Part shown: positions 4,539 through 55,967 of the stretch, in pieces
How positions within the stretch are numbered: the stretch's first letter is position 1
How the letters are laid out: the number at the start of each line of letters is the position of its first letter
Source: Tubulanus polymorphus
Lineage: Eukaryota > Nemertea > Palaeonemertea > Tubulaniformes > Tubulanidae
Length of the DNA: 64,000 nt
Assembly (NCBI RefSeq): GCF_964204645.1
Contig: NC_134028.1
Location: 20,496,153 to 20,560,152, forward strand
Direction of reading: 5' to 3'
Made by a program: the position numbers and the translations under genes
Notes under the pieces: generated by a model
What the model saw: only the letters and a program-made list of their open reading frames with translations
What the model was told of the DNA's origin: nothing
The model's database searches: none

Positions 4539-5256
4539 TCAAATTTTACTTAAATCTTTCACATTGTTTCTTGCGAAATCGATAATCAGCGATTTACCTT
4601 GAATTGAATTGAAGATTGTCGGCGAAATGTTACCTAGTAGATCCGTTGACTTAAGATCGTCCAAGATATTGCTTTGGACGATAGTATCGCAATCTAATTT
4701 ACTCAGTGGTCCCGATATGGCCTTGCCATAAAACTCGACAGCATGAGATGATACCTGCCAATAAAAACAAACGCAATCGAAAATGCTTTTTCTTGGTAAA
4801 TCCTTAAGATACAACAGTGAAAATCATGATTATAAGAATACTAAGAGGTTATAAATAATTGGCACTATTTCCAGTCTTGAATACAATTGCATAAAAACCC
4901 ACAATATAGATCTTAAACAACAGTTATTATTTCATTCTAACGTTTCGGGTTGAATACTTCCACTCATTTTCAGAGATTTGTTTCAAATACTGAGATGTAT
5001 ATCCGTCAATTCGTCTTTCCCTGAAGAATATCAACTGCACGTTGGACCAAGAAGGTTGGTAGACTTTAGGTTCATGAGTGTAGCTGCGATGGATTAACTC
5101 TACATATTACATTCGATTGGTGAATCGCTTTGACGATACAGCGTTTCCTCTTTATAGGGAATTATTTACCTTGCTACATGTACTTTCATCAGCAATGGCA
5201 TCGGTTGAAACCCAGAAAACCGCTAGAAAAACCACCAAAAAACTGATCAATTTCAT
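4539..5256 (-). pseudogene. Gene A copy 1: small secreted protein, C-terminally frameshifted
   Basis: Exon 1 (5170-5256, read leftward) encodes a 29-residue signal-peptide start beginning MKLISFLVVFLAVFW and ending in ADESTCSK before a GTAAAT donor. Exon 2 (4539-4754) follows a GGCAG acceptor in phase 0 and includes YGKAISGPLSKLDC. Compared with the near-identical copy at 21561-22316, one T is missing from a T-run near 4546, so the last ~14 residues are replaced by an immediate stop (100 instead of 113 residues). The product may still be secreted. A TATAAAA box lies at 5453-5459 on the minus strand. I do not recognise the family; the lesion could be real or a homopolymer sequencing error. Confidence 0.75.
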
Positions 5257-5452
5257 GTTGTCTCTGGAAAACTGCAATCAGATCATAGAAATAGAGACTG
5301 GTTTCCGGCAGTGTCAGAACAGGAGACTGGTTCCCGGCTGTGTCAGACCTATAGATATTACGAGTGATCTTACCTGTATGATATGTGTTGAGATTTAGCG
5401 TGGTGTTGAAGCGACTGACGAATGTCTCATTTTGTCGATTGAATCTTGCCAG

Positions 5453-5459
5453 TTTTATA
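5453..5459 (-). promoter_or_regulatory. TATA box of gene A copy 1
   Basis: TATAAAA on the minus strand, about 200 bases upstream of the ATG. It is preserved at the same relative place in the intact copies, followed by a short untranslated exon ending in a CAG|GTAAGATC donor. Confidence 0.6.
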
Positions 5460-5544
5460 CATATTTTGGGATGAATAATATTTGATCAGAAGTTGCTTAA
5501 CGGTTTCACATTATATATCCAACTCAGTAGATTCAATTCCAACT

Positions 5545-5660
5545 ATTTACAGGATCGATTCGATTATTTTTGCTTTGTTTAATCTGTCTGGCCCTGTTTT
5601 TCTACTGTATATTGCTGGAAATTTGAAGGACGATGGAGGTTTAATATTTTTCACCCACAT
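5545..5660 (+). other. Conserved exon-like hydrophobic segment divergent from gene A
   Basis: Upstream of each gene A copy, on the opposite strand, a TTTACAG acceptor-like site is followed by ~70 bases open in two frames. One frame gives a very hydrophobic 22-residue stretch starting IRLFLLCLICL and ending LLEI-stop (5558-5626); it is kept in the copies at 14.7, 17.8 and 26.2 kb. The other frame, IDSIIFALFNL, joins in phase to the HRM exon. Whether either is translated is unknown; it could instead be conserved promoter-proximal DNA. Confidence 0.3.
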
Positions 5661-5734
5661 ATGAATAAAATCTTGTAAAAGGCTACTTTATGAACTGTAT
5701 ATTCAAATATTAATTGAATTGCATCCGGTTCCAC

Positions 5735-6265
5735 AGTTCCACATTTCCACAGTAGAATTATTCAAATTATTGAAAACTCGTAAATCAAATATAACCAAAC
5801 TTTAGAACTTTGTCCTGGACTGTGGAACGGGATCCTAAGTAAGCAAGTCCTGAAGTGTGAAAAAGTGTGGTAAAAGTAAGTAGAAGTAGGTCATGAAGTG
5901 TGGAACTTGGCCCACAACTGTAAAAGTAGGTCCAGAACAATGGAACTGCGTCGGCAACTGTAGAAAGTAGTCCACAATTGTGGAACTTGCTCTACAACTG
6001 TAGAAGTAGGTCATGAAGTGTGGAACTTGGTACACAACTGTAAAGGAAGTTCCAGAACAATGGAACTGTGTCGACAACTGTAGAAAGTAGGTCTAGAAAC
6101 GTGGAACTTGCTCTACAACTGTAGAAACATGTCCAAAACTGTGGAACTGTTTCCAAAACCGTAGAATGGGCCCGAACTGGGTCGACAAGTAAGGAAGGTG
6201 CATTTCTGTGGAACTCGATCCAAAAATTAGGTCTACACCAAGACTGTGGAACCGGGAAAACTGTA
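5735..6265. repeat. Degenerate ~40-bp minisatellite (unit 1)
   Basis: Alternating words of the type GTGGAACTTGG, CCACAACTGTAGAAGTAGGTC recur every ~20 and ~40 bases with many changes. The same array, in either orientation, lies beside each gene A copy (14.9, 17.1, 22.9, 25.3, 51.8, 54.2 kb). Confidence 0.8.
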
Positions 6266-10702: not shown

Positions 10703-10759
<57 letters not shown>

Positions 10760-12508: not shown

Positions 12509-12656
12509 CTAGTTTTCTAGTTTTTTCAATGCATTTTTCAGAGATTTCAAATGGTTTCTTAGATCTTTGGCATTTTTTCGTACGTAATCGAAAATCAGCG
12601 ATTTGCCTTGTTTTGACTTGAAGACTTTCGACAAAACGCTAGGTAGTTGTGAACCT
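12509..12656 (-). pseudogene. Gene A copy 2: 3' fragment of exon 2
   Basis: Read leftward it encodes GSQLPSVLSKVFKSKQGKS onward to KKLEN and a stop, the last ~48 residues of gene A. Homology ends abruptly after GGTTCAC where unrelated sequence (TTATTTTTGG) begins; no first exon or 5' half of exon 2 is present. A near-identical fragment is at 47766-47914. Confidence 0.85.
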
Positions 12657-12805
12657 TATTTTTGGAAAAGAGTTGTTGTAAGAAGTCTATATTCGGGATT
12701 GGAAACTTCCGCGGAATCCTCAAAAGATTGGATTCGAACCTTTTACGGTATGTTCCATTGCGCATGTCTATTGCACGCGACAGAACAATAATCTCCCGTT
12801 CGATA

Positions 12806-13567
12806 TGGCTTCGATGTTAGACGTGAAAGATGAAACTAGGAAAAGATTTTCATATTTTAGTGTTGTTTGCGAGTTTATATCGATATTGTTTATAGGTAAT
12901 TCGATTTTCAGACTTATTTCCCGTTTGCATTGCTTTGTGGGAGATTTTATAACAGTTGATTTACAGTCGGGCTCAGTTAAACCTCGTCTCAAGAGAGAAA
13001 CCACTGTCACAGTATTTAATACCGGCCGGACGCCTTCAGGTTTAATTCACTCGTCTGTCAGAAATATCTCAGCGAAAAAGAATGTAAAAAATGGTGTTCG
13101 TTGCCGTACAGCCGGACAGAGCTGTTAGCGACAGCTGGAAGACACGCCCACACATCGGTCACACCTACAGGTATAAGCTCTCTTACTGAACATGTCGAGT
13201 TGAAACTTATATCTTTTTTCTGGCGCTTCTAAACTGTTTAATTTGTTTTGAACCGAATTACTTGTTATCGTTGAGATTGGGGTCTCGTGCAGTTGTTTGA
13301 GTGGAGGACTGGGAACCAAGAGGTCCCTAGATCGAAACCAGATCTGGCGTTGGCTGTCGAGACACTTGCATGGACTCAGCTCTGGTAACTCTGTCAGGTT
13401 GTGAGCCATAACAACCTATAAAAAGGCCTTGGCCGTCTCTTAGGAACCACTAGGGTTAAAGTGTTACTAGCTGCTGGGACGAAAAACTCTTCTTATTACA
13501 TGCTAGGTGGCGTTACGGCAATATAAACTTGTTCCATGTATTGGACACCGTCTGAAACAACTGGAAG
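12806..13567 (+). pseudogene. Gene B, unit 4: N-terminal exon, b1 and SINE-broken HRM exon
   Basis: An ATG near 12805 opens a short basic stretch and a hydrophobic segment (FSVVCEFISILFIG) that could be a signal or anchor, ending before a GTAATT donor. Exon b1 follows at 12912-13170 but carries extra bases (259 instead of 254), shifting the frame after KPRLKRET. The acceptor of the HRM exon is deleted and a SINE-like copy (about 13272-13490) separates its halves. This unit shows where gene B probably starts but is itself inactive. Confidence 0.5.
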
Positions 13568-13842: not shown

Positions 13843-14377
13843 CTAGTTTTCTTTATTTTTTTTCAATGCATTTTTCAGAGATTTCAAATTGTTTCTTAGA
13901 TCTTTGGCATTTTTTCTTACGTAATCGATAATCAGCGATTTGCCTTGTTTTAACTGAAATACTTTCGCCAAAACGCTAGGTAGTTGTGAACCTTTTAACT
14001 TTAGATCGTCCAAGATCTTGCTGTTGACGATAGTTTCGCAATCTAATTTGCTCAGTGGTCCCGATATGGCCTTGCCGTAACGTTCGACAGCAAGAGATGA
14101 TACCTGTCGATGAAACCAAACACATAATTGAAAATGCTATTTCCCGGAAAACCCTTTTAAATACAACACTGAGATTATAAGAATTTTAAGAGGTTATAGT
14201 GAGTGTAGCTGCGATGGATTAACACACGTGATATGATTGAAAAAAACGCTTTTTGACGATTACAGCGTTTTCTCTTTATAGACAGATATTTACCTTGCGA
14301 CATGTACTTTCATCAATGGCATCGGTTGAAACCCAGAAAACGGCCAGAAAAACCACCAAAAAACTGATCAATTTCAT
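13843..14377 (-). CDS. Gene A copy 3: small secreted protein, intact
   Basis: Exons (leftward) 14294-14377 and 13843-14103 join in phase 0 across a 190-base intron, with GTAAAT donor and ACAG acceptor, giving 114 residues. Residues 1-20 form a signal peptide (MKLISFLVVFLAVFWVSTDA). The mature part is small, Lys-rich and probably all helical: a Cys in the DESTCRK end of exon 1 and a second in SKLDCE suggest one disulphide, then a basic C-terminal helix ending KKNKEN. TATA box at 14573-14579. Pairs head-to-head with copy 4. Function unknown; secreted ligand, defence or reproductive protein are all possible. Confidence 0.85.
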
Positions 14378-17084: not shown

Positions 17085-17625
17085 AGGTTGAGACCCAATT
17101 CCGCAGTTTTGCCCATGAGTTCCACACTCCTGGACAAGTTCCATAAAACGAGATTCTGTTCCACAGTTCCGGATCTATTTCCACGTGTGGACCCAATTCT
17201 ACAGTTCTGCATGGACCCTCCAGTTGTGGACCCAGCTACGCAGTTCTGAATCTATCTACCGTTTTGGATCCAGTTCCACGGTAATGGAGATACGTCTACA
17301 GCTTGGTCCCAGTTCCACAATTATGGTACTACTTCTACCGTTGTGGATCCAGTTCCAGCTGGGCGCATTTCAACCATTGTCGATCGGTTATATAGTTCTC
17401 GACCTGCTTCTACAGTTGTGGACCCTGTTCCACAGTTCTGGATCTACTTCTACAGTTTAAGACCCAGTTCCACACTTCTGGACCCGTTTCTACAGTTGTT
17501 GGCCAAGTTCCACAGATGTGGACCTACCCCTACAGTTGTGGTCATGACTCCACACTTCTGGATTTGCTTATTTAGGATCCAGCGCCACAGTCCTGGACAA
17601 AGTTCCTAAGTTCGGTTGAATTTGA
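17085..17625. repeat. Degenerate ~40-bp minisatellite, unit 5
   Basis: Repeats of GTTCCACAGTTCTGGACC and CTTCTACAGTTGTGGACCC at ~40-base period; reverse orientation to the unit 1 and unit 4 arrays. Open frames across it are repeat by-products. Confidence 0.8.
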
Positions 17626-18101: not shown

Positions 18102-18810
18102 ATGAAATTGATAAGTTTTTTGGTGGTTTTTCTGGCCGTTCTCTGGGCTTCAACCGATGCCATTGATGAAAGTACATGTCGCAAGGTAAATATCTTTTAG
18201 TCATATCACGTGTGTTAATCCATCGCAGCTACACTCCTGAACCTAAAGTCTACAAATCTCCTTGATCCTACGTGCAGTTGATATTACTTAGGGAAAGAAG
18301 ATTAATTAACGAAAAAACCTCTCAGTATTTGAAACAAATCTCTGAAGATGAGTGGAAGTATTCCACCCGAAACGTTAGAATGAAATAACAACTGTTGTTT
18401 AAGATCTATATTGTGGGTTTTTACGCAGGGACTGGAAATAGTCTCAACTATTTATAACCTCTTCGTATAACCTCCTGATAATCGTGACATCAATGTTGTA
18501 ATTTGAGGGTTCACCAGGAAAAACCATTTTCAATTACATTTTTATTATATAGGTAGCATCTCTTGCTGTCGAACATTACGGCAAGGCCATATCGGGACCA
18601 CTGAGCAAATTAGATTGCGAAACTATCGTCAACAGCAAGATCTTGGACGATCTAAAGTTACAAGGTTCACAACTACCTAGCGTTTTGGCGAAAGTCTTCA
18701 AGTCAACACAAGGCAAATCGAAGATTTTCGCTTACGTACGAAACAATGTCAACGTCATTAGAAACAATTTGAAAACTTTGAAAGAAGCATTGAAAAAACT
18801 AGAAAACTAG
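18102..18810 (+). CDS. Gene A copy 4: small secreted protein, intact
   Basis: Coding exons 18102-18185 and 18553-18810 join in phase 0 (AAG|GTAAAT ... TATAG|GTAGC), giving 113 residues. The signal peptide is followed by IDESTCRK; exon 2 has HYGKAISGPLSKLDCE, QLPSVLAKVFKSTQGKS and a basic helix ending KKLEN. Two Cys, no Trp in the mature part, many Lys/Asn/Leu in helix-like spacing. A 5' untranslated exon lies upstream. Compared with copy 3, changes cluster in the C-terminal third (SKIFAYVRNNVNVIR versus SLIIDYVRKNAKDLR) whereas the first ~60 residues barely change. Its duplicate at 55259-55967 encodes the same protein. Confidence 0.88.
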
Positions 18811-21560: not shown

Positions 21561-22316
21561 CTAGTTTCCCAGTTGTTTCAATGCTGTTTCCAAAGATTTC
21601 AAATTTTTACTTAGATCTTTCACATTGTTTCTTGCGAAATCGATAATCAGCGATTTACCTTGAATTGAATTGAAGATTGTCGGCGAAATGTTACCTAGTA
21701 GATCCGTTGACTTAAGATCGTCCAAGATATTGCTTTGGACGATAGTATCGCAATCTAATTTACTCAGTGGTCCCGATATGGCCTTGCCATAAAACTCGAC
21801 AGCATGAGATGATACCTGCCAATAAAAACAAACGCAATCGAAAATGCTTTTTCTTGGTAAATCCTTAAGATACAACAGTGAAAATCATGATTATAAGAAT
21901 ACTAAGAGGTTATAAATAATTGGCACTATTTCCAGTCTTGAATACAATTGCATAAAAACCCACAATATAGATCTTAAACAACAGTTATTATTTCATTCAA
22001 CGTTTCGCGGGGAATACTTCCACTCATTTTCAGAGATTTGTTTCAAATACTGAGAGGTATATCCGTCAATTCGTCTTTCCATGAACAATATCAACTGCAC
22101 GTTGGACCAAGAAGGTTGGTAGACTTTAGGTTCATGAGTGTAGCTGCGATGGATTAACTCTACATATTACATTCGATTGGTGAATCGCTTTGACGATACA
22201 GCGTTTCCTCTTTATAGGGAATTATTTACCTTGCTACATGTACTTTCATCAGCAATGGCATCGGTTGTAACCCAGAAAACCGCTAGAAAAACCACCAAAA
22301 AACTGATCAATTTCAT
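21561..22316 (-). CDS. Gene A copy 5: small secreted protein, intact
   Basis: Exons (leftward) 22230-22316 and 21561-21815 join in phase 0 across a 414-base intron; 113 residues. Exon 1 encodes the signal peptide with an extra Ala before DESTCSK. Exon 2 reads VSSHAVEFYGKAISGPLSK, LDCDTIVQSN, LGNISPTIFNSIQGKS and ends ALKQLGN. Both Cys are kept. This is the diverged subfamily shared with copies 1 and 6. TATA box at 22512-22518. It is head-to-head with copy 6. Confidence 0.85.
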
Positions 22317-26530: not shown

Positions 26531-27260
26531 ATGGAATTGATAAGTTTTTGGTGGTTTTTCTGGCGGTTTTCTGGGTTTCAACCGATGCCATTGATGAAAG
26601 TACATGTAGCGAGGTAAATATATGTCTATGATGAGGAAACGCCGTTTGTTAATCGTCGAAGCATTTCTTCAATCATGTTATGATCAAATAATCCATCGCA
26701 GCTACACTCATGAACCTAAAGTCTACAAACCTCATTGGTCCTATGTACAATTGATATTCCTGATGGAAAGACGAATCAACAGAAATAACTCTCGGTATCT
26801 GAAACAAATCTCTGAATATGGGTTGAAGTATTCATTCCCATGAAAAAGTAGCTGCTGTTTTGGATTTATGTTGTGGGTTTTTACGCAATTATATTCAAGA
26901 CTGGAAAAAGTCGCAATTATTTATAACCTCTTAGTATTCTTATATTAATAGTGATTATCAGTGTTGTATTTGAAAGGTTCACCAAAGAAAAAGCATTTTC
27001 AATTGTGTTTGTTTTATTGGCAGGTATCATCTCGTGCTGTCGAGTTTTACGGCAAGGCCATATCGGGACCACTGAGCAAATTGACTTGCAAGTCTATCGT
27101 TAAAAGCAATATCTTCGACGATCTTAAGTCACCAGGTCGACTAGGTAATATTTCGTCGACGGTCTTCAATTCTAGAAAGGGCAAATCGCTGATTATCGAT
27201 TTCGCAAGAAACAATGCGAAAAATCTAAGAAAAATTTTGATCCTTGATCTTGAGCCTTGA
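26531..27260 (+). pseudogene. Gene A copy 6: frameshifted
   Basis: Exon 1 (26531-26613) is 83 instead of 84 bases: one T is missing from the T-run after ATAAG, so the ATG is out of frame with FLVVFLAVFWVSTDAIDESTC. Exon 2 (27024-27260) keeps YGKAISGPLSKLTC and NISSTVFNSRKGKS but its C-terminus is altered after NLRK to ILILDLEP. It keeps both splice sites and a TATAAAT at 26326-26332. An upstream in-frame ATG (26437) exists but would add a non-signal leader. Probably dead, unless the T-run is miscalled. Confidence 0.75.
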
Positions 27261-27263
27261 AAC

Positions 27264-27985
27264 AACTGGGAAACTAGAAAACTAGAAAATGCCATGGAAA
27301 TGATGGATAATTCGAACAACATCGCGTCATACTAGAAGATCTAAATTCTAATTCTAATTCAGTTCTAGGTTTCGGGTTTCCTTGTTCTATACGATTCAAA
27401 TGTTTGTCAGTTATTTGTTTATAAATAAATGCAAATAGATAATTCTTCGTCGGCATTATAAATGAATGTAGTGATGTATTGATTTCATTGACGGTTCGAT
27501 CGCAGTTTGCAGTTCCCCCGGAAACCGGTGAGCAGATGAAACGAGTTCCCAGTATACGTAAGTATAGTTGGACCAGGACGGCATTGAGAATCTTCAACTT
27601 TTGACAACACATGAAGACAGCTGATGGCTTAGTTCGGCACACTCAGATATTAAACTAGATCACCAAAGTAATAATGATCGGACTAGTTTCCTTGTACCTA
27701 TTCTTTCGACTCTTAATCAACATGTCTTTTCTGAATGTAATGAACTTTCTCCAAATATCCCTATCAGAGAAGGAAAGAAAATCATCGGGAAAACTAGGCG
27801 TTCGCGCGATCACTATCGTTATCTGGGATATGAAGGCATAGGTTGTACATTTATTTAGTTATTCATCGTCTCAGTTCATACTAAGTAGAAAGATACGCAC
27901 AGGATAAAGAAATTGAAAGAAAAAACAAAAAATATTACATGATTACAAATGAACCAATACTATAATCATACAATCGATACAAAAA
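27264..27985. other. Gene A downstream region and transition to retrotransposon
   Basis: Up to about 27740 this is related to 19160-19440 (GACCAGGACGGCATT, GGCTTAGTTCG, TTCTTTCGACTCTTAATCAAC words). The rest has no recognisable feature up to the retroelement. Confidence 0.45.
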
Positions 27986-33590: not shown

Positions 33591-33795
<205 letters not shown>

Positions 33796-34394: not shown

Positions 34395-35907
34395 ATTATG
34401 TTTGGTCACAACTTCACCTCTTATATACCCTCTCTGAATTAATTAGGAGGAAAGAAACTTCGATCACTAACGAATTAGAGGGCTCAACGGGTTGAGGCAT
34501 AAACAACATAAGTTCTTGTCGTTTAATCTACAATATTTGATTTTTCTTGCAGGTAAAGAAGCCGTATCGGTCAGTTCTATTCACGGCAGTTGTTTATTTC
34601 GTGGTCATCTTCATCAGGAAAATCGACATTTCATGCCGGATAAATGCACGAAATGTTCTTGTTACAAGGGCGGGATGCAGTGTTATCGTAAATCGTGTCC
34701 AGATCTGAATTGCCCGAAACAATTCTTGGTCTACGATAAGAAATCGTGTTGTCCGATATGTAAGCGTCCAGCTGGATGTGCATACAAAGGCAAAATGTAC
34801 AAGGTAAATATCTTACTATTTGAGTTAAGAGCACATGACTCTTATTGTGAACATATATTCTAATAACCGTAGGATAAGCATTGACGAAATATCCCTGTAC
34901 ATTGTAGTATATTTTTCATAAAAAAGGGTGTATGCGACGAATAAGGAAAATACAGTTAATTTCCCTGTTTTCGGCTTAATTTTGAAGTAGATGAAAACCT
35001 GTTTTCTTTGAATTGAAGCCACGGGAACCACTTAACCTCATTTTCAAGCCGGCTTAGAATAGGCGATGTTGGGTTATTATGTCATTGATTTGCACAAAAC
35101 GGACACCAGTATAATCAAATTCCCATCCTCGATGGCGAGCGTTTCCAAAAACCCAGCAACAGTGAGTTCCGGGAACTCATTTTGACATGGAATGTCGGAA
35201 TCCCAGCCTTCGATAATTTCCCATCTCCACCATGACCCAATAGACTCAATTACTCAAATAATTTGCGGACCTCATTTTGACACGACGTTAAGAATTCAAA
35301 ACCCGCCAAGGAATCGACCACGAAATTGAATTAATAAAACTTTTGATAAATGAATAAAAGTTTACCGGTAGGAAATTATACGGAACAATTATCATCTTAC
35401 CCACGTACGTGTATATATATATATACCCAGCATTATAGATATTATTGAAGTTTTCAGTTAAACAAGCCATAACAGAATTTACGTGACATGAACTACTACC
35501 ACAAAATAAGCTTTTCATCTTATTCCTAAAGGAACTGGTTCAACACTAATCAGTTATCTATTTTGTTACTAGCATGCAAAGCAAAACATTCAAATGTTTT
35601 TGATATATTCTAAATGAATTTTTGCTTTTATTTCTATTAACGGGATTGATGGAAAAGTTGTTTAGCTGAATCGCAGTATCGTCTCGCAACTGGATCTTTT
35701 ATGACACAGTGTATTATACTTTTTCCACTGTCGGGTTATTTTCAAAGTGATTCACAATACGCGAGCGGATCTATTGCTATATGATAGTGATGGTGATTGA
35801 ATACTAATTAAAGATAGAATGTCAGCTCTTTTATCTGTATTAGTGTATATAAATATATATATTTATTAACGTGTCATCTCGATAAACAAGCCAGCCTATA
35901 ATAAGGC

Positions 35908-36711
35908 TTACAAGACACATTGACATTTACAAGTACAACAAACATGTGACATTGGATTAAGAATAAAGAATTTAGAATTTCGAAGTTTCATTGCGGCTGA
36001 TATGAATCCGCAAACACTTACGATACGACTATTACTTAGTAGAATTTTAGTTTTTACGGCATTAGACAAAAGATTGATATCTAGTTCTAGGATACCATTG
36101 ATCTTAGAAAAGAGGTCATTACGTAGATCAACGTATTTGTAGCAAGTGCACAAGAAACGTTCCTCTGTTTCAACTTCATTCGCTGTACATGCAACACATA
36201 TTGTTCAATTGGCAAATTACGGTAGCGACCTAGTTCTATGTTCAAGGGAAAAGTACCATTTCTTAACCTTGCTATTGTGGAGCGGTTTGAACGTGATGTG
36301 TGTAATTTGACATAGTCTTCTGTTCCAAATTTTGGCTTAAGTACGGTATAAGTACGGAGTTTTGATTGCAGAGGAACATTTCTTGACCACGTTATTGCAT
36401 AGTTTCTATATAAAATTATTCTAATATCATTCAAAACCTTTTTGATTTGATGGGTATTTAGAATAGATGTTCTCATAAAAATATTCCATATTACATTCAG
36501 TTAGAACTGACTTGACGAATGAACACCAATTAGCTTTGCCAATAAAGGCCTGTTCATAATCATAGAGAAACAAATGTTTGGTTAATCTAGTATCTGGCAT
36601 ATTACAAAGACGAAACCATAGGCGCAAAACCTCAATACGATGCCTAATAAATACCGGTAGCCATCCCATATCACCTTCAATCGATAACAAAGATGATTTG
36701 TATATGCCCAT
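35908..36711 (-). pseudogene. C-terminal part of a non-LTR-type polyprotein, frameshifted
   Basis: Three overlapping minus-strand ORFs form one product: RHRIEVLRLWFRLCNMPDTRL; then LRTYTVLKPKFGTEDYVKL, RSTIARLRNGTFPLNIELGRY; then CTCYKYVDLRNDLFSKI. The R-S-x-ARLR-G-x-PLxIE-GRY-x-P-E motif with a following Cys cluster is common at the C-terminus of endonuclease/reverse-transcriptase proteins annotated in molluscs and lancelets. At least two frame changes and no RT domain, so a relic. Confidence 0.6.
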
Positions 36712-39700
36712 GTAATAGCTAGAAAGGACATAAGTAGCAAATAATCACGAATCTGAGAATGTTCAATGTATACACTGACTTTTAAGTGTTCTTAATATCC
36801 AGCAGTGATGTATAGTGCGTGTATTATTGAAGTTCGTTTAAGTGTCCATGTGCAATAGGTATTATCGGGTAGACGGAATGGCCTGGTCGCTATCGGTCTA
36901 TATAGCTTTATGTCCTAATGTTACGGAATTATAAATAAAATGCTCTAGTATAGGCCTACAAAGAAAGTCTTTACAGCGGTCAAATGCATGGTCTCGAAGA
37001 AAGAGCGAACCATGCGAAAGTTATTTACAAAATAATGTGAATTATCAGGCCAGTAGTAGGCGGCATTGCAACTGATTCGAAATAGTTGTGTCATCACTAA
37101 GAAATATCACATTTAGATTAATAGTTTTAGCCGGTGCTCGTGGTAATTCTGATGCGAGAATGGTGTGATCAGATTAAACCAAATGATATTTTAATTTTCG
37201 TATAGTAATTACAATTGGTCGTTTGATTCAATTGTTCATTTTCTTGAAAATAGAAACCCTTATAGAACTCAGATGGAAAATCCACTATGTTAATCCACTA
37301 GTTTAAGCAAGTTTCGTTTTATCTAAATAATAGGCCTATGTTCAGTGAGTTTCGATCACAATGAGTTAAATTAGATATGATTATCATTGTTATGAGTATG
37401 AGCCAATTAGATTGGACTTATGATTGAACGTTCCGGTTTCATACAACAAAACAAATAGAATGGATATTCTATATCATGAAAATATCAAATAATATGTGAA
37501 ACATTTCACATTGACACGATGCAGTGATATTAGTGAGCTATTTGTTCTATTGACGTTGACCGTGAACATGAATAAATGTACTTGTACCAGCAGAACAATT
37601 TTTGTCAGAACAGTCTTTGAACAGTTGAGTTACCTCCAGTTGAAGAATTAACTTTATAGTATTTGAAAAAATGGATTTTAATGCCTGATTCATAAGTCCT
37701 CATTTAATATCTTCTGATATCTGTCTCATAATCGGGCAACGCATATGGTATAGGAACAAACCTCACGGGTTTCAAAGTCCTGAAATAGGCTTTTGAGATC
37801 GGAATCGCTGTCGTCATCTTGTTATCATTTTAATACCTTCAACATTATTCAGAGCTTATCTCTTATTTATTTGGTGTGTCCCTACTAACCCACCACTCCT
37901 GCCGGGACTGAATTACGGGCTCGGATTTTGAAGTCAAAATTCGGGGTAACGAATATTCTATGTATGGATTATCGCAGATTCACTGAAATTTCAGTTTATA
38001 TAAAACATCCAGTTAGGAAATTCCAGTTCAGTAAATAATTCCATTCAACCTGCACCAGCAAGCAACGATCTGGGGCTTTCAGTGTCGGCATTATATAATT
38101 ATATATAGGCCTACTTTGAAATTCTGAAATAACTGAGCCATATTGACTGTGTTTTTTCTGCTCTCGTTTTCAATGAATTAATAGTCCGAAAGTTAATATT
38201 AACACATAGACTATATAGGCACGCTACGGTTAAGATAATAGTGAAATCGATCAGTCTAATGCGACACAGATTAAAGGCATCGGTAATGAAAACTAGTCTA
38301 TGAAAAATAGGGTGTGAGTGCTGACTCCTACACCCTAAATTCTAGTAAAGAAATTTTTTTTTCATGTGGTCCAACCAGTATTTGATAAATCTATGCCAAT
38401 GAACCTACAGAAAGATCGCATAGGAGACAGTTTAGGTGATGGTCTCACTGTATAAACTAATAGGGTTGCTCGTTCAGCCGCTCTTAAGTGCTCTCAAGAA
38501 TACTTAGTTCTAATCCATCCCAAAATAAATTGTGCCATTTCTATTTGAAGCCTTTTACCTTATACAAAAACAAGAGGATATCGCCATAGTTGCACCATGA
38601 GCTCGCTATAACAAAAACAACTGAGGAGGTCAATAGTCAACGGGATCCAATATCCAGTACTCTGCTTTGCAATTAAAATGGACCTACAAAAATCCGAATA
38701 CATCTCTACATTTTGTTTCATGTCTTTCGAGAAAATAGAAAAAACCACACTATCAAAAACGATGATATCTAAAATGTGCAATGAACATCTTTAGGCAAAT
38801 ACTGACCTTCAATTTCAAAGATTGTATTTATAGATTAATAATACACGATATACATTAATAGACATAATTTAGTTATCGAGCCCATTGCAGGTCTATGCAA
38901 TCTGATATTATTTGAATATGTATTTATCAAGTAAGTTAACGCATTAATACGGTTGTTGATTTATAAGCGTGAGTCTATCCGGGTAACGGGTAATAATCCG
39001 CCACATAAAAATCTAGCCCTTCCAAATTGAATTTCATAACATGTTAATCGATGATTCTCATCTTGATTAAGAAAAACATTTATCGATGTTACTATTTCTA
39101 CTGAGCACTAGATGATCGACAGTAATCCCTTCAAAGTGTACTGCGAACGCTAGCGAAGCACACGAATCATTTTAAGGAATGATAACTTGAGGATATTTTG
39201 ATTCTAGGAGTACGAGTTGTTGATTAGATTCGAAACTCAGCCCATAGAATAAGACAATTGGCTAATAAAGGTCACGTGAAAATGAATAATGTCTATTTAA
39301 CCTAAATTCAATGATTTTACATATATATATTCCTCAACACCGTTGTAAAAAATATTATCCACGGGTTTCTAAAATATTGCATGTTTCCACTGTTTCCCAA
39401 TCTCTGCAGTATGCAATCCTTACGTCGAATTAAATACTACGATCAGAATTACAATTTCATAACCTTGTTTATCAACTTTAGGTGACAGTGATCAAATGAT
39501 AATTGAGAATACTAAAGAATATTGTTTCTGAAGTATACTTCAGAAACAATATTGCTTGGGGTATGTGTTTCGATTGAATTCGATTAATTCGCCATATAAA
39601 ACAAAAGCGATCAGACCATTTAGTACCCCGATAATACGGGTTTAGGCACGGGTATTTGTGCGGGCATCATCATCTCCATATACATATGATAAATTATTGC

Positions 39701-40430
39701 TGGAGATTTATAATATAAGTCAAAGCACTGATGCAGCATTGTAGTAAAGATTGACTGTTTATTTCCTGACGCTCGTTATTGCCTATAGGCCTACACAAGA
39801 ATAGAGATCAGATGAAATGAAGTCCTGTCATTCAACCAAACGGATATTCAATTAATTTCGTTAATAAAGAAGCAAACCAAACTAAAGAAATAAAATCATT
39901 TCTTTGACAGAATTTGAACTTGGACCCTGAATGCTTTGTTTTGCACACACCCAGCTACTAACAAAATACACAACGGTTTGTATTGCCTATTGATTCGTTG
40001 CGCATGCAGTGAAGTCATTGTAGTGTATAATACTATTTCTCGTGGATTTTATTGGAGGTTGGAAAATAAATGCGCTTACACTCTGCAAATATGTTTTACA
40101 CTCTATCAAGCATCAGAATTTGATAAAGTAACTTATCTATAATAATTGTGACTTTCATAATTACGGAACTTTGTTCCAGGTTTTGGAACCTAAAACTTCG
40201 ATTGTTATAATATATTTAAAAAGATGTATAGTGTACCTACTGATTAATGAGGTTTCAACTTGTTAATATGTAGTGGACTTAACAATAGTAATATATAAGA
40301 TAGAATAGTTTTTTGGGAGTTTTTCTTTATTTTCTACTTGATTTAAATTCGAGTCCCTGGCAGGTTTAAAATGTTTAATGCCGCGTTAACTCCGTAAATC
40401 ACGGTATTTGACCTTATTGGGCCATTAGGA
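36712..40430. other. Interior of intronic block, no gene seen
   Basis: Only short ORFs without domain features on either strand. Contains a perfect 36-bp palindrome at 39518-39553 and scattered TAGGCCTA words. Confidence 0.5.
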
Positions 40431-43041
40431 AGACGGGAAATTATCGAAGGCTGGGATTCCGACATTCCATGTCAAAATGAGTTCCCGGAACTCACTGTTG
40501 CTGGGTTTTTGGAAACGCTCGCCATCGAGGATGGGAATTTGATTATACTGGTGTCCGTTCTGTGCAAATCAATGACATAATAACCCAACATCGCCTATTC
40601 TAAGCCGGCTTGAAAATGAGGTTAAGTGGTTCCCGTGGCTTCAATTCAAAGAAAACAGGTTTTCATCTACTTCAAATTTAAGCCGAAAACAGGGAAATTA
40701 ACTGTATTTTCCTTATTTGTCGCATACACCCTTAAAAGAGCAAGAAACTGTCTTTTTAAATTTGAATTAAATCTTTATCTTTAATGCTAATCTGTCCTTT
40801 ATTCCAACCTTGAACTCAGTAGTATTCTATTTATAGATTGATCAGATCTGGAAGGATGGATCCTGTACTGATTGTAGTTGTAAAGATGGAAAAGTCACCT
40901 GCCAAGAAATAACGTGTGGTTCAACTCCTAAATGTTCACAGGTAAATATCTTAGTTTCCATGGCTGAAAACCTGGTAAAATTGAGGAATTAATATTAAGA
41001 TCATTATTGATTGAAAAAACCAATAATTATTGTTCTATCATTTCTTGAGTGAATACCTACTCGATGTTTCGACCATATCCTAATACTTGTTTGCAGGGAT
41101 ACTTTCGGGCTGTTTTTATTCTAAATGTGGGGGTTTATTTTAGTTTGATATGTTTTAATGCTGCCCGTCATCCATTTTTGGAGGGTTTTTCGATGGCGTT
41201 CAAATCATTTCATATTTTCGTGAAATCATGAAACTTGAATACATTATATCTTTTCATTTTTTTTCAGAAATCTATTCTCTATCGGTCTGAAGGAGAATGT
41301 TGCCCTCTATGTGTCGCGGCTCATAGTATCTGTTCAGTTACTAACTCGAACAAGGATTATCTATCGTACGCTTCGTTTGACGGGTTCAATTACAAATTCG
41401 GCGGAACTTGTCGCTACACTTTACTTCAAGACGTCGCAGATCGTCGGATTAACATCCGCGTCAAGAATGAGTATCATCCGTATCCGACTGTCAGAACTAA
41501 ACTCGTTACAATCATCGTATCTTCGTTATCTATCGGGCTTCATCGAGATCTGGATATCAGAGTGAATCGTAGTAAAATCGCTGTTCCGTTCAAACATGAA
41601 AACTTTACTATCGAAGTCGTCAAAAACGCGACAGTGGTCGTGAATATGATAAACGGATTTAGATTAACCTGGAGTAAACAAGGCGATATCAATGTTTACG
41701 TAACTGCGAGTTGGCAGAATAAATTAGGCGGTCTTTGCGGTAATTTCAATCAAGTCGTAAAAGACGATAGTAAAATGAAAATCAAGCAGGAAATTGTCTC
41801 AGACTCGGAGCTTTTCGCCAAGTCGTGGCGAGTCGGTGGTAAATGTAACTGCGACGAACCGTTTAATAGTAGAAAGTCGTCGTGTAAAACTGTGCTCATC
41901 AGAAATGTGCTGTCTTAAAGAGTCCGGCGTTCAAAAAATGCCACAAGAAAGTCCCCGTCCAACCATTCCTCAGGTAAATATCAACTTCTTTAGCAAAGAA
42001 ACCATTACGCGTTGGGGAATAGGTGGTTCATGAAAAAAGAATTTGTAAAATTCACGACCGAATTAACCAGTTTCCTCAGTTGGCTGGTACCGAATAAGGA
42101 ACAGTCCATATCTCATAGAAACAAGTTACGAAACTCATAAAATGAAAAACTAGTTTGATAATTATTTGTTATCTATTTTATTTTCAGGGCTTGCACTGAT
42201 AACGTTTGCGAATGTCCTTCGGGTAAAAACTGCGAATGCGCCATCGTGAAGTTTTACGTGAAAGAATGCGCCGAGCACAACATACAACTCAAACTACCTA
42301 AACAATCTCAATGTGACCATTCTACTCGGCAGAAACAACATGACTCTTACTCTTCAAAGAAGAAGAAGAACTTGAAGAAACAAAACAAGCAGAAAAGAAG
42401 AGGAAAAATGCCGTTGTTGTTACGATCATTAGGAGGTGTCGTAATTGGTGATGAGTTCGAAAACGCCATATTGGATTAGAACGGGCGAGATCCTACATAA
42501 TGATAAAACCTGTTCTGAAAAAATGTTGACTTTAAGATTAGTAAAAAAATTCAGAAAGATTTAGTGAAAAAAATGTTTGTGTCTAGTGGAAAAATTATTG
42601 ATATGATAATTGATTCTTGGTGTTCTTTTTTCCTGTTGCTGCTGCTGCTGTTGTTGATGTTGTTGTTGTTAATTAAACTTTTTATTTCAGAGTTTTCAGG
42701 ATTTAAAGTCATTTCGTAGAGTATGTAGAATATTTCTATATTTTTTTGGCATTGTTTTCAATGTCTTTATCTCTAACATTGCTTAACATATATATATACA
42801 CTGTACGATTTTGTTATCATATTGCGACTTTGTTTTGCAGGTTGCAATTAGTATGTTTTTGTAAATTTTTGTATTTTTATATAATTCTTTAACTCAAATT
42901 CAATGTCTTGACGTTTGTAATGTTACAACTTTTATATACTGTGCTCTAATAATGAATTTAGATTGTATTGATTTGTTACTAAAATATCTGGTTTTTTCAG
43001 GATAATGTAAATAATCGTATGTTTTTATAACATTTGTTTGA

Positions 43042-44840: not shown

Positions 44841-45080
44841 ATGAAATTTTCGGCAGTTTTTGTGTTGTGTTTTTTACTGGTGGTCGCCGTTACTGGTGAT
44901 CAAATAGAACGAGCTCTCCGAGACGCTGAGACTGCTGGACACGATCCGCTGGAGTTGATGGAGGCCAGACGAACCGTTCAACTGATGAAACGAGGATGGT
45001 TCAAGAAACTCTGGAAAGGAATCAAGAAACACTGTTCTATTGGTTACAACCGAGGCTTCACAGCTCAATGCAGTGGTTAG
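44841..45080 (+). CDS. Precursor of a cationic amphipathic peptide, candidate antimicrobial
   Basis: A 79-residue prepropeptide in one coding exon; an untranslated exon ends at 44338 and a GATTACAG acceptor lies 14 bases before the ATG. Order: signal peptide (1-19, SAVFVLCFLLVVAVTG), acidic propeptide (DQIERALRDAETAGHD...), a dibasic Lys-Arg site at 51-52, and a 27-28-residue mature peptide starting GWFKKLWKGIKKHC and ending in Cys-Ser-Gly. The mature end has net positive charge, an amphipathic helix, two Cys and a C-terminal Gly that could be amidated. This layout (acidic pro-region masking a cationic GWF-start peptide) is known from tunicate, fish and annelid host-defence peptides. Poly(A) signal at 45115. 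Activity is inferred; a neuropeptide is less likely given the charge and helix. Confidence 0.8.
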   Translation: MKFSAVFVLCFLLVVAVTGDQIERALRDAETAGHDPLELMEARRTVQLMKRGWFKKLWKGIKKHCSIGYNRGFTAQCSG

Positions 45081-47765: not shown

Positions 47766-47914
47766 CTAGTTTTCTAGTTTTTTCAATGCATTTTTCAGAG
47801 ATTTCAAATGGTTTCTTAGATCTTTGGCATTTTTTCGTACGTAATCGAAAATCAGCGATTTGCCTTGTTTTGACTTGAAGACTTTCGACAAAACGCTAGG
47901 TAGTTGTGAACCTT
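47766..47914 (-). pseudogene. Gene A copy 7: 3' fragment of exon 2
   Basis: Counterpart of 12509-12656 with the same breakpoint next to TTATTTTTGG, so the truncation predates the large duplication. Confidence 0.85.
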
Positions 47915-50862: not shown

Positions 50863-51394
50863 CTAGTTTTCTTTATTTTTTTTCAATGCATTTTTCAGAG
50901 ATTTCAAATTGTTTCTTAGATCTTTGGCATTTTTTCTTACGTAATCGATAATCAGCGATTTGCCTTGTTTTGACTGAAATACTTTCGCCAAAACGCTAGG
51001 TAGTTGTGAACCTTTTAACTTTAGATCGTCCAAGATCTTGCTGTTGACGATAGTTTCGCAATCCAATTTGCTCAGTGGTCCCGATATGGCCTTGCCGTAA
51101 TGTTCGACAGCAAGAGATGATACCTGTCGATGAAACCAAACACATAATTGAAAATGCTATTTCCCGGAAAGCCCTTTAAATACAATACTGAGATTATAAG
51201 AATTTTAAGAGGTTATAGTGAGTGTAGCTGCGATGGATTAACACACGTGATAGGATTGAAAAAACGCTTTTTGACTATACAGCGTTTTCTCTTTATAGAC
51301 AGATATTTACCTTGCGACATGTGCTTTCATCAATGGCATCGGTTGAAACCCAGAAAACCGCCAGAAAAACCACCAAAAAACTGATCAATTTCAT
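50863..51394 (-). CDS. Gene A copy 8: small secreted protein, intact
   Basis: Exons (leftward) 51311-51394 and 50863-51123, phase 0, 187-base intron, 114 residues. Same layout as copy 3, differing in SLAVEHYGK (His for Arg) and VFQSKQGKS (Ser for Leu). Signal peptide, Cys at DESTCRK and LDCE, basic C-terminal helix ending KKNKEN. TATA box 51591-51597. The 1.76-kb element begins ~140 bases beyond its 3' end, so it may lie in or near the 3' UTR. Confidence 0.87.
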
Positions 51395-52679: not shown

Positions 52680-53860
52680 TGAGGCAGTCTAGGGGTACCG
52701 TCTGACTAAGCCCCGGACGGTGTTGAGACAAAATGATGTTTAAACGCTGATAGTTGAGTTCACACTTGTCCCTAACGCTAACACGGTATTATCCCACGAG
52801 CAAACAAGCGATCAAACGTCATATTGTGTAACAAGATTATTTCGTTAATCATGTCATTCGAACGAAATGTTTTCGTGGGAACGGCATTTTTTTCATTCTA
52901 ACGAAAATTTCCTCGTAGGAACGACACGTTTTTCATTCCAGCGAAATGCTTGTTTTTTGATGGTAGGCGATTTCCCCTAACCCCTTAATCTATGAACGAG
53001 GTGGTCATACAGATTATTAAGGAGATCATTGCCATTTGTCAGTCAAAAACCGGTTCCGTGAATACCTAATACCCATTAATCCTCCTAATATATGTTACTA
53101 ACCCTTTATGTATAGAAAGTAGCCGAAATATTGTATGATTCTCATTTAGTTTCAATGAAAAGGTTGATTATAATAGAATGTTACCTGAATCGAGCATAAG
53201 ATTAACTACTTGTGGATCGATCACGGATTTGGAATTATAATCTAACACCCCAATGAAGTACCCCCTTTAAAATCACGTGAGCACCGCCCTTTACGTCCAT
53301 ACATGTATATGACATTCCGGTCGAAAACTCTGGTCGAGAATTCCTTCTTGTAAGAATAAATAAGGATATTTTTTCATCGTGTCACCTCCGGGGGCAAGGC
53401 AAAGCATACTGGTGATATATTACAACCAAACCCGACATAAACCGCAATCTTTAAAATCACCTTCATTTCACCTTGAAAAACTGCATTATACAATCGCATT
53501 TCAACAGTTCCTGCATTTGCGCAGATTTTTTTTTAGATCAATCTTGTTATTCAGAAAATCTTGACTATTTTTGCAGATCGAGTTCGATCAGGCGCAAGAT
53601 TGAATTCTACACTAGCTCTCAATCGAATAATTGTGTAATACAATGTGTAATCAGTTGTTATGACTTGCAACAGAATATGACGTTTGTCTAAATGATCGTG
53701 TGTTTGATCACGGGATATATACCGTATATACCGTGTAAGCGTTAGGGGACACGTGAACTGTGTAAACTAAAATACCAGTGTTAAAACATCATTTTGTGTG
53801 AACAACGTCCGGGGCTTATTCAGACGGTACCCCTAGACTTCATCGCCCCCTTCCCATTTA
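52680..53860. repeat. Palindromic junction between gene A copies 8 and 9
   Basis: Counterpart of 15552-16729, again with the GGGGTACCGTCTGA arms, a TTCGAACGAA-type array (52855-52950) and a decayed membrane-segment exon on the minus strand (~53377-53470). Confidence 0.85.
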
Positions 53861-54234
53861 AATTCATTAAATTTCCTCAGGTTTACAATTCATGAGCATA
53901 CAGATTTGTCGGCATGAATTCAAACCGTGGCAGAAACTTCAAGACATGACTTGGAGTATTTGCCATAGAGGTGATCTGATAAAACCGACCACTGCCATCT
54001 AATTAAAACAAAATAATTACTGGTCGGTTTAGATAGAATATAACTGGTGATCAATACAATCAATGATTTTATTGATATTCACTGCGTTAAAACAATCGAC
54101 GTAATGCGTTATTTTCGCCCATTCTCCCCAAATCAAACAAGTTCTCGTCGATTTATTGCAAATACAGAAAAAACACAGAATATGTAAGTCAAAACGTCCT
54201 TTTTTCAGGTTGAGACCCAATTCCGCAGTTTTGC

Positions 54235-54745
54235 CCATGAGTTCCACACTCCTGGACCAAGTTCCATAAAACGAGATTCTGTTCCACAGTTCCGGATCTA
54301 TTTCCACGTGTGGACCCAATTCTTCAGTTCTGCATGGACCCTCCAGTTGTAGACCCAGCTACGCAGTTCTGAATCTATTTCTACCGTTTTGGATCCAGTT
54401 CCACGGTAATGGAGATACGTCTACAACTTGGTCCCAGTTCCACAATTATGGTACTACTTCTACAGTTGTGGATCCAGTTCCAGCTGGACGCATTTCAACC
54501 ATGGTGGATCGGTTATATAGCTCTGGACCTGCTTCTACAGTTGTGGACCCTGTTCCACAGTTCTGGATCTACTTCTACAGTTTAAGACCTAGTTCAACAC
54601 TTCTGGACCCGTTTCTACAGTTGTTGGCCAAGTTCCACAGATGTGGACCTACCCCGACAGTTGTGGTCATGACTCCACACTTCTGGATTTGCTTATTTAG
54701 GATCCAGCGCCACAGTCCTGGACAAAGTTCCTAAGTTCGGTTGAA
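54235..54745. repeat. Degenerate ~40-bp minisatellite, unit 10
   Basis: Counterpart of 17085-17625, nearly identical. Confidence 0.8.
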
Positions 54746-55054
54746 TTTGACTCAAGAGTTTGAAAATGAGTTCATTTTCAATAAGTTGCCTCTCTGTGAA
54801 ATTGTGGAACTGTAGAACCGGAAGTAGTTCGTATGATATTTGAATCTAAAGTTTAAATCTAGTCTTTTACAATAATCAATTCATGTGTGCATAAAAAATA
54901 TGTCGAACCTCCATCGTCCTTCAAATTTCCAGCAATATAGAGTAGAAAAACAGGGCCAGACAGATTAAACAAAGCAAAAATAATCGAATCGATCCTGATA
55001 AATAGTTGAAATTAATTCAGCAACTTCTGATCAAATATTATTCAGCCAAAAATG

Positions 55055-55061
55055 TATAAAA
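55055..55061 (+). promoter_or_regulatory. TATA box of gene A copy 9
   Basis: TATAAAA followed by an untranslated exon ending at 55142 (CAG|GTAAGATC); the coding exon follows the acceptor at 55241-55243. Confidence 0.65.
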
Positions 55062-55258
55062 CTGGCAAGATTCAATCGACAAAATGAGACATTCGTCAGT
55101 CGCTTCAACAGTACGTTAAATCTCATTATACACATTATACAGGTAAGATCAATTATAATATCGGTAGTTCTGACACAGCTGGAAACGAGTATCCAGTTCT
55201 GACTGCCGGGAACAAGACTCTATTTTCTATGATCTGATTGCAGTTTTTCGGATACAAC

Positions 55259-55967
55259 ATGAAATTGATAAGTTTTTTGGTGGTTTTTCTGGCCGTTCTC
55301 TGGGCTTCAACCGATGCCATTGATGAAAGTACATGTCGCAAGGTAAATATCTTTTAGTCATATCACGTGTGTTAATCCATCGCAGCTACACTCCTGAACC
55401 TAAAGTCTACAAATCTCCTTGATCCTACGTGCAGTTGATATTACTTAGGGAAAGAAGATTAATTAACGTAAAAACCTCTCAGTATTTGAAACAAATCTCT
55501 GAAGATGAGTGGAAGTATTCCACCCGAAACGTTAGAATGAAATAACAACTGTTGTTTAAGATCTATATTGTGGGTTTTTACGCAGGGACTGGAAATAGTC
55601 TCAACTATTTATAACCTCTTCGTATAACCTCCTGATAATCGTGACATCAATGTTGTAATTTGAGGGTTCACCAGGAAAAACCATTTTCAATTACATTTTT
55701 ATTATATAGGTAGCATCTCTTGCTGTCGAACATTACGGCAAGGCCATATCGGGACCACTGAGCAAATTAGATTGCGAAACTATCGTCAACAGCAAGATCT
55801 TGGACGATCTAAAGTTACAAGGTTCACAACTACCTAGCGTTTTGGCGAAAGTCTTCAAGTCAACACAAGGCAAATCGAAGATTTTCGCTTACGTACGAAA
55901 CAATGTCAACGTCATTAGAAACAATTTGAAAACTTTGAAAGAAGCATTGAAAAAACTAGAAAACTAG
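55259..55967 (+). CDS. Gene A copy 9: small secreted protein, intact
   Basis: Coding exons 55259-55342 and 55710-55967 give a 113-residue protein identical to copy 4. The conservation of both exons, splice sites, TATA box and untranslated exon supports an expressed gene. Flanks differ from copy 4 by scattered substitutions and small indels, so the duplication is young or has been homogenised by gene conversion. Confidence 0.88.

What the first reader, a model, noticed from the sequence alone, without database searches (positions are those of the whole stretch)
4539..55967. Unrecognised, young multigene family of small secreted proteins (gene A)
Nine copies in 52 kb: five intact (113-114 residues; 13843-14377, 18102-18810, 21561-22316, 50863-51394, 55259-55967), two frameshifted, two fragments. 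Seen directly: signal peptide, phase-0 intron at the same site, two conserved Cys, a basic helical C-terminus, a conserved TATA box and an untranslated exon. Two subfamilies differ mostly in the C-terminal third. I match the protein to no known family. Lineage-specific expansion with a variable end suggests a host-interaction, defence or reproductive role; that is inference.
Basis: partly seen in the sequence, partly recalled or inferred. Interest (0 to 1): 0.8.

Follow-up and report, generated by a model that had tools for sequence, protein, structure and literature searches.

The report
Fast-evolving array of secreted-protein genes
An unidentified animal carries dozens of copies of a gene for a small secreted protein that matches no family I could search; the copies change fast, sit beside a likely antimicrobial-peptide gene, and look like part of the animal's chemical defences, though this has not been tested.

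Summary
Signal peptide, phase-0 intron, two cysteines, TATA box and untranslated exon are present. The protein matches nothing convincing in Pfam, NCBIfam, PDB sequences or PDB folds.

Two corrections. First, the window is a slice of a 0.85 Mb array, with at least 39 exon-2 copies there and on one unplaced contig, in four subfamilies plus degraded forms. Second, the family is older than the array: three intact paralogues on another chromosome share signal peptide and intron, and add an acidic repeat tail.

Within the commonest subfamily exon 2 is better conserved than the intron (p = 0.018). Between subfamilies dN/dS is near 1, and exon 2 differs more than the intron in 4 of 6 pairs. That fits birth-and-death with fast divergence; positive selection is not proven.

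The amplified segment also carries an antimicrobial-peptide-like gene (44841-45080) that starts GWFKK, as sea-urchin centrocin 1 does. My best explanation, at 0.38, is a secreted helical host-defence effector. Reproductive, venom or passive-duplication readings remain open. The species was not identified (animal, TTAGGG telomeres, 12 large scaffolds); no expression data were available.

The parts
13843..14377 (-). Intact copy, subfamily A: exon 1 14294-14377, intron, exon 2 13843-14103, 114 aa; TATA at 14579, untranslated exon ends 14494
18102..18810 (+). Intact copy, subfamily B: exon 1 18102-18185, exon 2 18553-18810, 113 aa; TATA at 17930, untranslated exon ends 18015
21561..22316 (-). Intact copy, subfamily C: exon 1 22230-22316, exon 2 21561-21815, 113 aa; TATA at 22518, untranslated exon ends 22433
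50863..51394 (-). Intact copy, subfamily A: exon 1 51311-51394, exon 2 50863-51123, 114 aa; TATA at 51597, untranslated exon ends 51512
55259..55967 (+). Intact copy, subfamily B: exon 1 55259-55342, exon 2 55710-55967, 113 aa; TATA at 55055, untranslated exon ends 55142
4501..5256 (-). Broken copy, subfamily C: reading frame disrupted near the end of exon 2; promoter and untranslated exon still present
   Evidence: (L033)
26531..27277 (+). Broken copy related to subfamilies C/D: frame lost in the signal peptide and near the end of exon 2; TATA box changed
   Evidence: (L034)
12509..12657 (-). Fragment: 3' part of exon 2
47766..47914 (-). Fragment: 3' part of exon 2
44841..45080 (+). Neighbouring co-amplified gene: 79-aa precursor with signal peptide, propiece ending in Lys-Arg, then a cationic segment starting GWFKKLWKGIKKH with two Cys; antimicrobial-peptide-like
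   Evidence: comparison with centrocin

Best explanation
The genes encode a secreted, probably all-helical host-defence effector of about 93 residues. Shown by sequence: a three-exon gene with a TATA promoter and an untranslated first exon; a signal peptide and the first Cys in coding exon 1; the rest of the mature protein in exon 2, including a second Cys and a C-terminal segment that is net basic in every subfamily tested. Inferred: the two cysteines form one disulphide that ties the N-terminus to the helical domain; the basic amphipathic helix contacts microbial or parasite surfaces; and duplication with fast divergence of exon 2 produces a repertoire of variants under one core promoter and export signal. 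In the chromosome-10 paralogues an acidic repeat tail follows the basic domain and offsets it fully in one (E3, +12 and -12), largely in another (E1, +21 and -17) and partly in the third (E2, +23 and -11), much as acidic propieces do in many antimicrobial precursors (recalled). The array copies lack that tail.
For: Gene anatomy. Intact frames in 24 of 32 models from the array and C61 and in 3 of 3 C10 models. Within subfamily A, exon 2 has 8 variable sites in 261 against 16 in 191 in the intron (p = 0.018); within A+B, nonsynonymous 13/532 against synonymous 12/149 (p = 0.0047). dN/dS between subfamilies is near 1; in the C-terminal part it exceeds 1 in 2 of 6 array pairs (A-C 1.36, B-C 1.23). 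The 450 bp upstream differ less than exon 2 in 5 of 6 pairs of representatives. Basic C-terminal segment in 7 of 7 sequences; acidic tail only in the three C10 paralogues. The same duplicated segments carry an antimicrobial-peptide-like gene, 8 copies in the array region, 7 of them 3-6 kb from a subfamily A copy. Its start and precursor layout resemble centrocin.
Against: Subfamily C is not cationic overall (-1), so a simple cationic-peptide mode does not fit every copy. The modelled subfamily D copy has lost the first Cys. The amphipathic moment of the C-terminal helix is only modestly above shuffled sequences (fractions 0.01-0.06). The structure model is mediocre (pLDDT 68, exon 2 only) and matches no fold. 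Proximity to the peptide gene follows from shared segmental duplication, so it is not independent evidence of shared function. In subfamily B exon 2 is no better conserved than the intron (10/258 against 14/367); subfamily C shows 3 nonsynonymous and 0 synonymous changes; in subfamily A exon 1 alone is about as variable as the intron (6/84 against 16/191); and beyond the core promoter the upstream 450 bp vary strongly among A copies (mean difference 0.107). McDonald-Kreitman-type tests are not significant. One intact A copy has no core promoter. The C10 paralogues have no peptide gene nearby. No expression data.
Confidence: 0.38

Rival explanations
1. Reproductive or signalling proteins (gamete, egg-coat, seminal fluid or pheromone) that diverge under sexual conflict or species recognition.
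For: Secreted, predicted helical, fast-diverging exon 2 with a more conserved signal peptide exon and core promoter; multicopy array with four subfamilies.
Against: Co-amplification with an antimicrobial-peptide-like gene rather than with an evident reproductive gene; the basic domain and acidic tail of the C10 paralogues look more like a defence precursor. None of this excludes it.
Confidence: 0.2
2. Offensive secretion: a venom, salivary or mucus component used on prey or hosts.
For: Small secreted protein, conserved signal-peptide exon and fast-changing mature part, tandem array: the usual pattern of such families (recalled); one search shows the pattern.
Against: Only two Cys, one of them lost in the subfamily D copy modelled; the organism and its feeding habit are unknown; nothing found in the neighbourhood points to a secretory gland.
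Confidence: 0.15
3. Mostly passive array: the genes multiply because they lie in a segment that duplicates, and most copies are decaying with little or no function.
For: The whole segment, including BHMT-like and von Willebrand D gene parts and the peptide gene, is copied. Many copies are broken, joined to foreign sequence or fragmentary. A one-ratio codon model gives dN/dS 0.925, not clearly below 1. One intact A copy lacks the core promoter.
Against: Exon 2 is better conserved than the intron and flanks within subfamily A, with depleted nonsynonymous change in A+B. Array against C10 exon 2 gives dN/dS 0.55-0.75 for A, B and C, clearest for A (bootstrap dN>dS 0.01-0.03). Neutral drift would leave a 114-codon frame free of stops with probability 0.27 (A-B) down to 0.04 (A-E3) (substitutions only, and the copies compared were picked for being intact). 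TATAAAA is kept in 22 of 24 intact array genes, while the three copies of one broken group have a changed box.
Confidence: 0.17
4. Partner or carrier of the neighbouring cationic peptide, for instance a secreted helical protein that binds, stores or neutralises it.
For: Seven of eight array peptide genes lie 3-6 kb from a subfamily A copy.
Against: The spacing is explained by shared duplication; subfamily A is itself strongly basic (+9), which disfavours binding a cationic peptide; C10 paralogues have no peptide gene nearby.
Confidence: 0.05

Closest known systems
Mytilus CRP-I gene family (PMC10138031, abstract and section list seen)
   Different: CRP-I is cysteine-rich with a proposed knottin fold; this family has at most two Cys in the mature proteins modelled and is predicted helical. 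No sequence comparison was made.
Mytilus myticalins (PMC12294457, search listing only)
   Same: Hyperdiverse multigene antimicrobial family
   Different: Described there as lacking cysteine; here two Cys in most subfamilies. No sequence comparison was made.
Sea-urchin centrocins, for the neighbouring gene only (PMC3561256 and PMC4805251, passages seen)
   Same: Signal peptide, about 30-residue prosequence, mature chain starting at about residue 51; centrocin 1 heavy chain starts GWFKK as does the window peptide
   Different: Centrocins are heterodimers with a light chain after a 24-residue interchain; the window precursor ends 28 residues after the Lys-Arg site, has two Cys there and no light chain

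Membership tests
Any described protein family in Pfam-A | hmmscan match | tested here: not met
   0 families at E<=10 for 3 of 3 array proteins and 0 for the distant C10:13.02 Mb exon; the two C10 tailed paralogues scanned give only weak hits under cut-off (best E 0.02 and 0.057) on the end of the domain and the repeat tail
NCBIfam | hmmscan match | tested here: not met
   0 families for 2 of 2 proteins; the library is made for prokaryotes
Secretoglobin (small secreted helical two-Cys proteins; resemblance recalled) | Match to a Pfam model of the family | tested here: not met
   No Pfam match of any kind
Arrayed secreted effector families (a kind, not a homologous family) | Tandem array with intact copies and pseudogenes | tested here: met
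Arrayed secreted effector families (a kind, not a homologous family) | Conserved signal-peptide exon and promoter, faster mature region | tested here: met
   Between representatives, exon 1 differs less than exon 2 in 6 of 6 subfamily pairs and the upstream 450 bp in 5 of 6. Within subfamily A the order is reversed: exon 2 is the least variable part
Arrayed secreted effector families (a kind, not a homologous family) | Positive selection on the mature region | tested here: inconclusive
   C-terminal dN/dS above 1 in 2 of 6 array pairs (A-C 1.36, B-C 1.23; bootstrap dN>dS 0.78, 0.73), 0.69-0.85 in the other four; N-terminal part of exon 2 A-D 2.73 (bootstrap 0.99) and B-D 2.07 (0.90); 3 of 90 region-by-pair comparisons reach 0.95, uncorrected; McDonald-Kreitman-type tests p 0.07-0.30; one-ratio model 0.925
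Cationic amphipathic antimicrobial proteins | Net positive mature protein with amphipathic helix | tested here: inconclusive
   C-terminal segment +3 to +8 in 7 of 7, but whole mature subfamily C is -1 and the moment is only modestly above shuffles
Cationic amphipathic antimicrobial proteins | Kills or binds microbes | not testable with these tools
   Needs protein and assay
Centrocin (neighbouring gene 44841-45080) | Heavy chain plus light chain joined by a disulphide | tested here: not met
   Frame ends 28 residues after the Lys-Arg site; no light-chain stretch
Centrocin (neighbouring gene 44841-45080) | Signal peptide of about 20, prosequence of about 30, cationic chain starting at about residue 51 | tested here: met
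   Predicted mature start at Gly-52, GWFKK (cleavage sites judged by eye) against residue 51 and GWFKK in the papers

The most novel reading that the evidence does not exclude
A defence gene complex of a new kind of effector: a protein family without known relatives, built on a basic helical domain with one disulphide, whose ancestral forms carry an acidic repeat tail that holds the domain in check, while array copies without that tail multiplied and diversified together with a centrocin-like peptide gene in the same duplicating segment.
Probability: 0.15. Interest if true: 0.6.

Novelty: new member of a known kind. Interest (0 to 1): 0.4.

Why it matters
The protein family itself appears undescribed in the libraries searched, and the array gives a natural experiment: near-identical copies beside subfamilies that differ mainly in one exon under a shared core promoter. 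If the copies are expressed defence effectors, the locus links the amplification of two unrelated secreted families in one segment and gives short proteins that can be expressed and assayed. The kind of system, a birth-and-death array of fast-evolving secreted proteins, is well known.

Tried and rejected
Tried without result. Organism identity: COX1 (control rang in 8 of 14), annelid haemoglobin linker, tunicate GH6 and mollusc haemocyanin gave nothing, with controls silent for the last three, so these exclude nothing; paper searches by assembly size and scaffold lengths gave no match that fits; the first 10 kb of small contig C77 show no sign of a mitochondrial genome. Literature search for peptide strings of the family gave 0 papers. 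Virus and prokaryote collections gave no confirmed relative (each scan used two short peptide patterns). Fold comparison gave one match at E 8.2, treated as none. No Rfam family at gathering score and no tRNA in the window.

Rejected. A transposon-borne gene: flanks hold a dispersed repeat of about 200 bp (query 191-394), but the gene itself was found only at family loci on C4, C61, C10 and, as a remnant, C8 (the tool scores only its best candidates, 40 of 59, so this is not a full census; the promoter was not searched on its own). A purely neutral array. Functional coupling with the peptide gene from distance alone: the 1-in-10000 placement result is expected from shared duplication and is not counted as functional evidence.

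Dropped rows. For selection within subfamilies I used 13 A, 6 B and 4 C copies that passed my gene model; L033, L034-L036, L038, L053, L054, L064 and the single modelled D copy L065 were left out (L053 only because my donor pattern missed its AAA-GTAAAT junction, so it may be intact; L064 because no exon 1 was found nearby). Seven of the nine subfamily D copies listed were not fetched. The A+B test leaves out subfamily C; with C it is p = 0.011. Pairwise tests used one representative per subfamily and two of the three C10 genes. The codon model used 11 of 21 distinct coding sequences, and its dN/dS = 1 comparison also fixed kappa at 2, so it is rough. A first promoter count used a wrong TATA pattern; one search replaces it.
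Full report
WHAT WAS CHECKED. The window is G000:C4:20496153-20560152 of a 267.8 Mb assembly with 77 contigs. Of the first 16 contigs by number, twelve are 11.5-32 Mb long and four are under 0.25 Mb; the start sequences of three of the twelve (C8, C9, C10) hold TTAGGG telomere repeats. With von Willebrand C and D domain exons, a BHMT-like gene and a LINE in the window, this is an animal; the species was not identified. Five have open spliced frames of 113-114 residues with a phase-0 GT-AG intron at the same site. Two are broken and two are fragments of exon 2. TATA box, untranslated-exon donor and acceptor before the ATG occur in six of nine window copies by exact pattern and align across subfamilies A-D and the C10 paralogue E1 (the E3 sequence held was too short to align there and E2 was not included). 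Among 31 gene models with an exon 1, 23 have ATGTATAAAAC and one ATGTACAAAAC 175-208 bases before the ATG; three B copies have ATATATAAAAC, the three copies of one broken group have a changed box, and one intact A copy, L045, has no such core. The untranslated-exon donor was found in 29 of the 31.

EXTENT. A genome search with one protein gave 109 matching pieces. Counting exon-2 matches of about 70 residues or more, 39 lie in the C4 array (37, at 19.855-20.704 Mb) or on the unplaced contig C61 (2), and three on C10 (3.01, 3.05 and 3.84 Mb). Remnants lie at C4:21.06 Mb and C8:10.49 Mb. A further single exon at C10:13.02 Mb, used as query, matched only itself and family members (best E 0.002) and is a likely, not certain, distant member. 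I modelled 32 of the 39 copies; 24 are intact, and with the three C10 genes that makes 27 intact genes and 18 distinct proteins. A tree groups subfamilies (A,B) and (C,D) with the C10 genes outside (midpoint root, bootstrap not fully settled). Four further loci, fetched from two other groups of matches, are degraded: in one group the signal-peptide frame is lost and exon 2 runs into sequence like that found downstream of other copies; the other lacks the intron donor and most of exon 2.

THE C10 PARALOGUES. They share the signal-peptide start (MNLIS against MKLIS), the intron position, the Cys before the intron, the 'DC' Cys and the C-terminal helix; the one tested, E1, also shares the core promoter and untranslated exon. 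They end in an acidic tail built of VDNSAES-type repeats. The tail aligns as an insertion just before the array stop codon, with 3' untranslated sequence aligning on the far side. Basic domain and tail charges are +21 and -17 (E1), +23 and -11 (E2), +12 and -12 (E3).

SELECTION. Within subfamily A (13 copies) exon 2 has 8 variable sites in 261 against 16 in 191 in the intron (p = 0.018). Exon 1 alone is not better conserved (6 in 84), and both exons together give p = 0.049. Flanks vary more (mean difference 0.107 in the 450 bp upstream, 0.039 just downstream, 0.0056 in exon 2). No exon of the 13 A, 6 B and 4 C copies has an indel. Within A+B, nonsynonymous 13/532 against synonymous 12/149 (p = 0.0047); with C added p = 0.011. 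Against this: in subfamily B exon 2 and intron are equally variable (10/258, 14/367), and subfamily C has 3 nonsynonymous and 0 synonymous changes. Between subfamilies, whole-protein dN/dS is 0.61 (A-B), 0.81 (A-C), 0.83 (B-C), 0.95 (A-D), 1.03 (B-D) and 0.79 (C-D). The C-terminal part gives 1.36 (A-C) and 1.23 (B-C), not significant, and 0.69-0.85 in the other four pairs. The N-terminal part of exon 2 gives 2.73 for A-D (bootstrap 0.99) and 2.07 for B-D (0.90). Of 90 region-by-pair comparisons 3 reach 0.95, uncorrected, so this is no proof of positive selection. Exon 2 differs at least as much as the intron in 4 of 6 pairs (A's intron is short and aligns only in part) and more than the upstream 450 bp in 5 of 6. 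Array against C10 exon 2 gives 0.55-0.75 for A, B and C and 0.72-0.92 for D, clearest for A (bootstrap dN>dS 0.01-0.03, 300 resamples). A one-ratio codon model on 11 of 21 sequences gives 0.925. Under a substitution-only neutral simulation a 114-codon frame would stay free of stops with probability 0.27 (A-B) down to 0.04 (A-E3); the copies compared were picked for being intact, so this is weak support. The pattern is divergence between subfamilies close to neutral speed or faster in places, then constraint among recent copies. It fits birth-and-death with diversification.

PROTEIN. Mature subfamily A is 94 residues, pI 9.7; subfamily C pI 5.7; subfamily D pI 11 (signal cleavage after TDA judged by eye). 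Two AlphaFold2 runs on exon 2 gave all-helical models of low to middling confidence (pLDDT 58.8 with 4 rows; 68.1 with 8 rows). The C-terminal helix is the best-supported part. Foldseek against the PDB gave one match at E 8.2, that is, none. Pfam and NCBIfam gave no match for array proteins. The tailed C10 proteins gave only weak Pfam hits under cut-off. PDB sequences gave E 0.018 to a designed protein and 1.1 to another.

NEIGHBOURHOOD. Window 44841-45080 encodes a 79-residue precursor with a signal peptide, a propiece ending in Lys-Arg, and GWFKKLWKGIKKHCSIGYNRGFTAQCSG. Twelve matching pieces exist in the genome: eight copies in the array region, three at C4:21.98-22.14 Mb and one short piece; two of the twelve rows list an internal stop. 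Seven of the eight array copies lie 3-6 kb from a subfamily A gene. The duplicated segment also holds BHMT-like and von Willebrand-domain gene parts, so proximity reflects shared duplication. Centrocin 1 heavy chain also starts GWFKK (PMC3561256, passages seen). EeCentrocins have a 20-residue signal peptide, a 30-residue prosequence and a mature start at residue 51 (PMC4805251, passages seen). The window peptide has the same layout but no light chain; Pfam gave it no match. It is antimicrobial-peptide-like, not shown to be a centrocin.

MECHANISM. I commit to a secreted helical host-defence effector (0.38). Shown: export signal, gene structure, Cys pattern, basic C-terminal segment, array with constraint among recent copies, acidic tail in the paralogues. 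Inferred: helical fold, disulphide, target, tail function, defence role. Rivals are reproductive (0.2), passive decaying array (0.17), offensive secretion (0.15) and partner of the peptide (0.05).

NOVELTY. The sequence family appears new relative to the libraries searched; UniProt, nr and HHpred were not available. The kind, a fast-evolving arrayed secreted family, is known, for example the mussel CRP-I cluster of about 50 genes and pseudogenes (PMC10138031, abstract seen).

Noticed in passing
window 44841-45080: Antimicrobial-peptide-like precursor with a centrocin-like start and layout, itself a multigene family with 8 copies in the array region and more at C4:21.98-22.14 Mb.
   Followed up: partly
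window about 34922-40737: A 5.8 kb element with 330-nt terminal inverted repeats (96% complementary) lies between von Willebrand C and D exons; copies at 99% identity on C9, C7 and C36: a young mobile element.
   Followed up: partly
window about 30700-32380 (-): Exons of a betaine-homocysteine methyltransferase-like gene, in a stretch also copied in other segments of the array.
   Followed up: partly
window 34492-34863 and 41235-41918 (+): Von Willebrand C and D domain exons, perhaps parts of one gene now split by the inserted element.
   Followed up: partly
window 57566-61985 (+): A non-LTR retrotransposon with a zinc-knuckle and GDSL-like ORF followed by a reverse-transcriptase ORF.
   Followed up: partly
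window 5430 (-), 17959 (+), 22489 (-), 51568 (-), 55084 (+): A conserved ATG in the untranslated exon opens a short upstream frame (about MRHSSVASTAR in several copies); a similar start is seen in the C10 paralogues L059 and L060.
   Followed up: no
window 17396-17567, 25504-25870, 54327-54692: 20-bp-period minisatellite (CTTCTACAGTTGTGGACC type) near several copies.
   Followed up: no
window about 13290-13493: Repeat of about 200 bp dispersed over several chromosomes (SINE-like), downstream of gene copies. The neighbouring stretch 13062-13214 resembles the sequence that exon 2 runs into in the degraded copy L072.
   Followed up: partly
window 33593-33790: Long CTG/CAG trinucleotide run.
   Followed up: no
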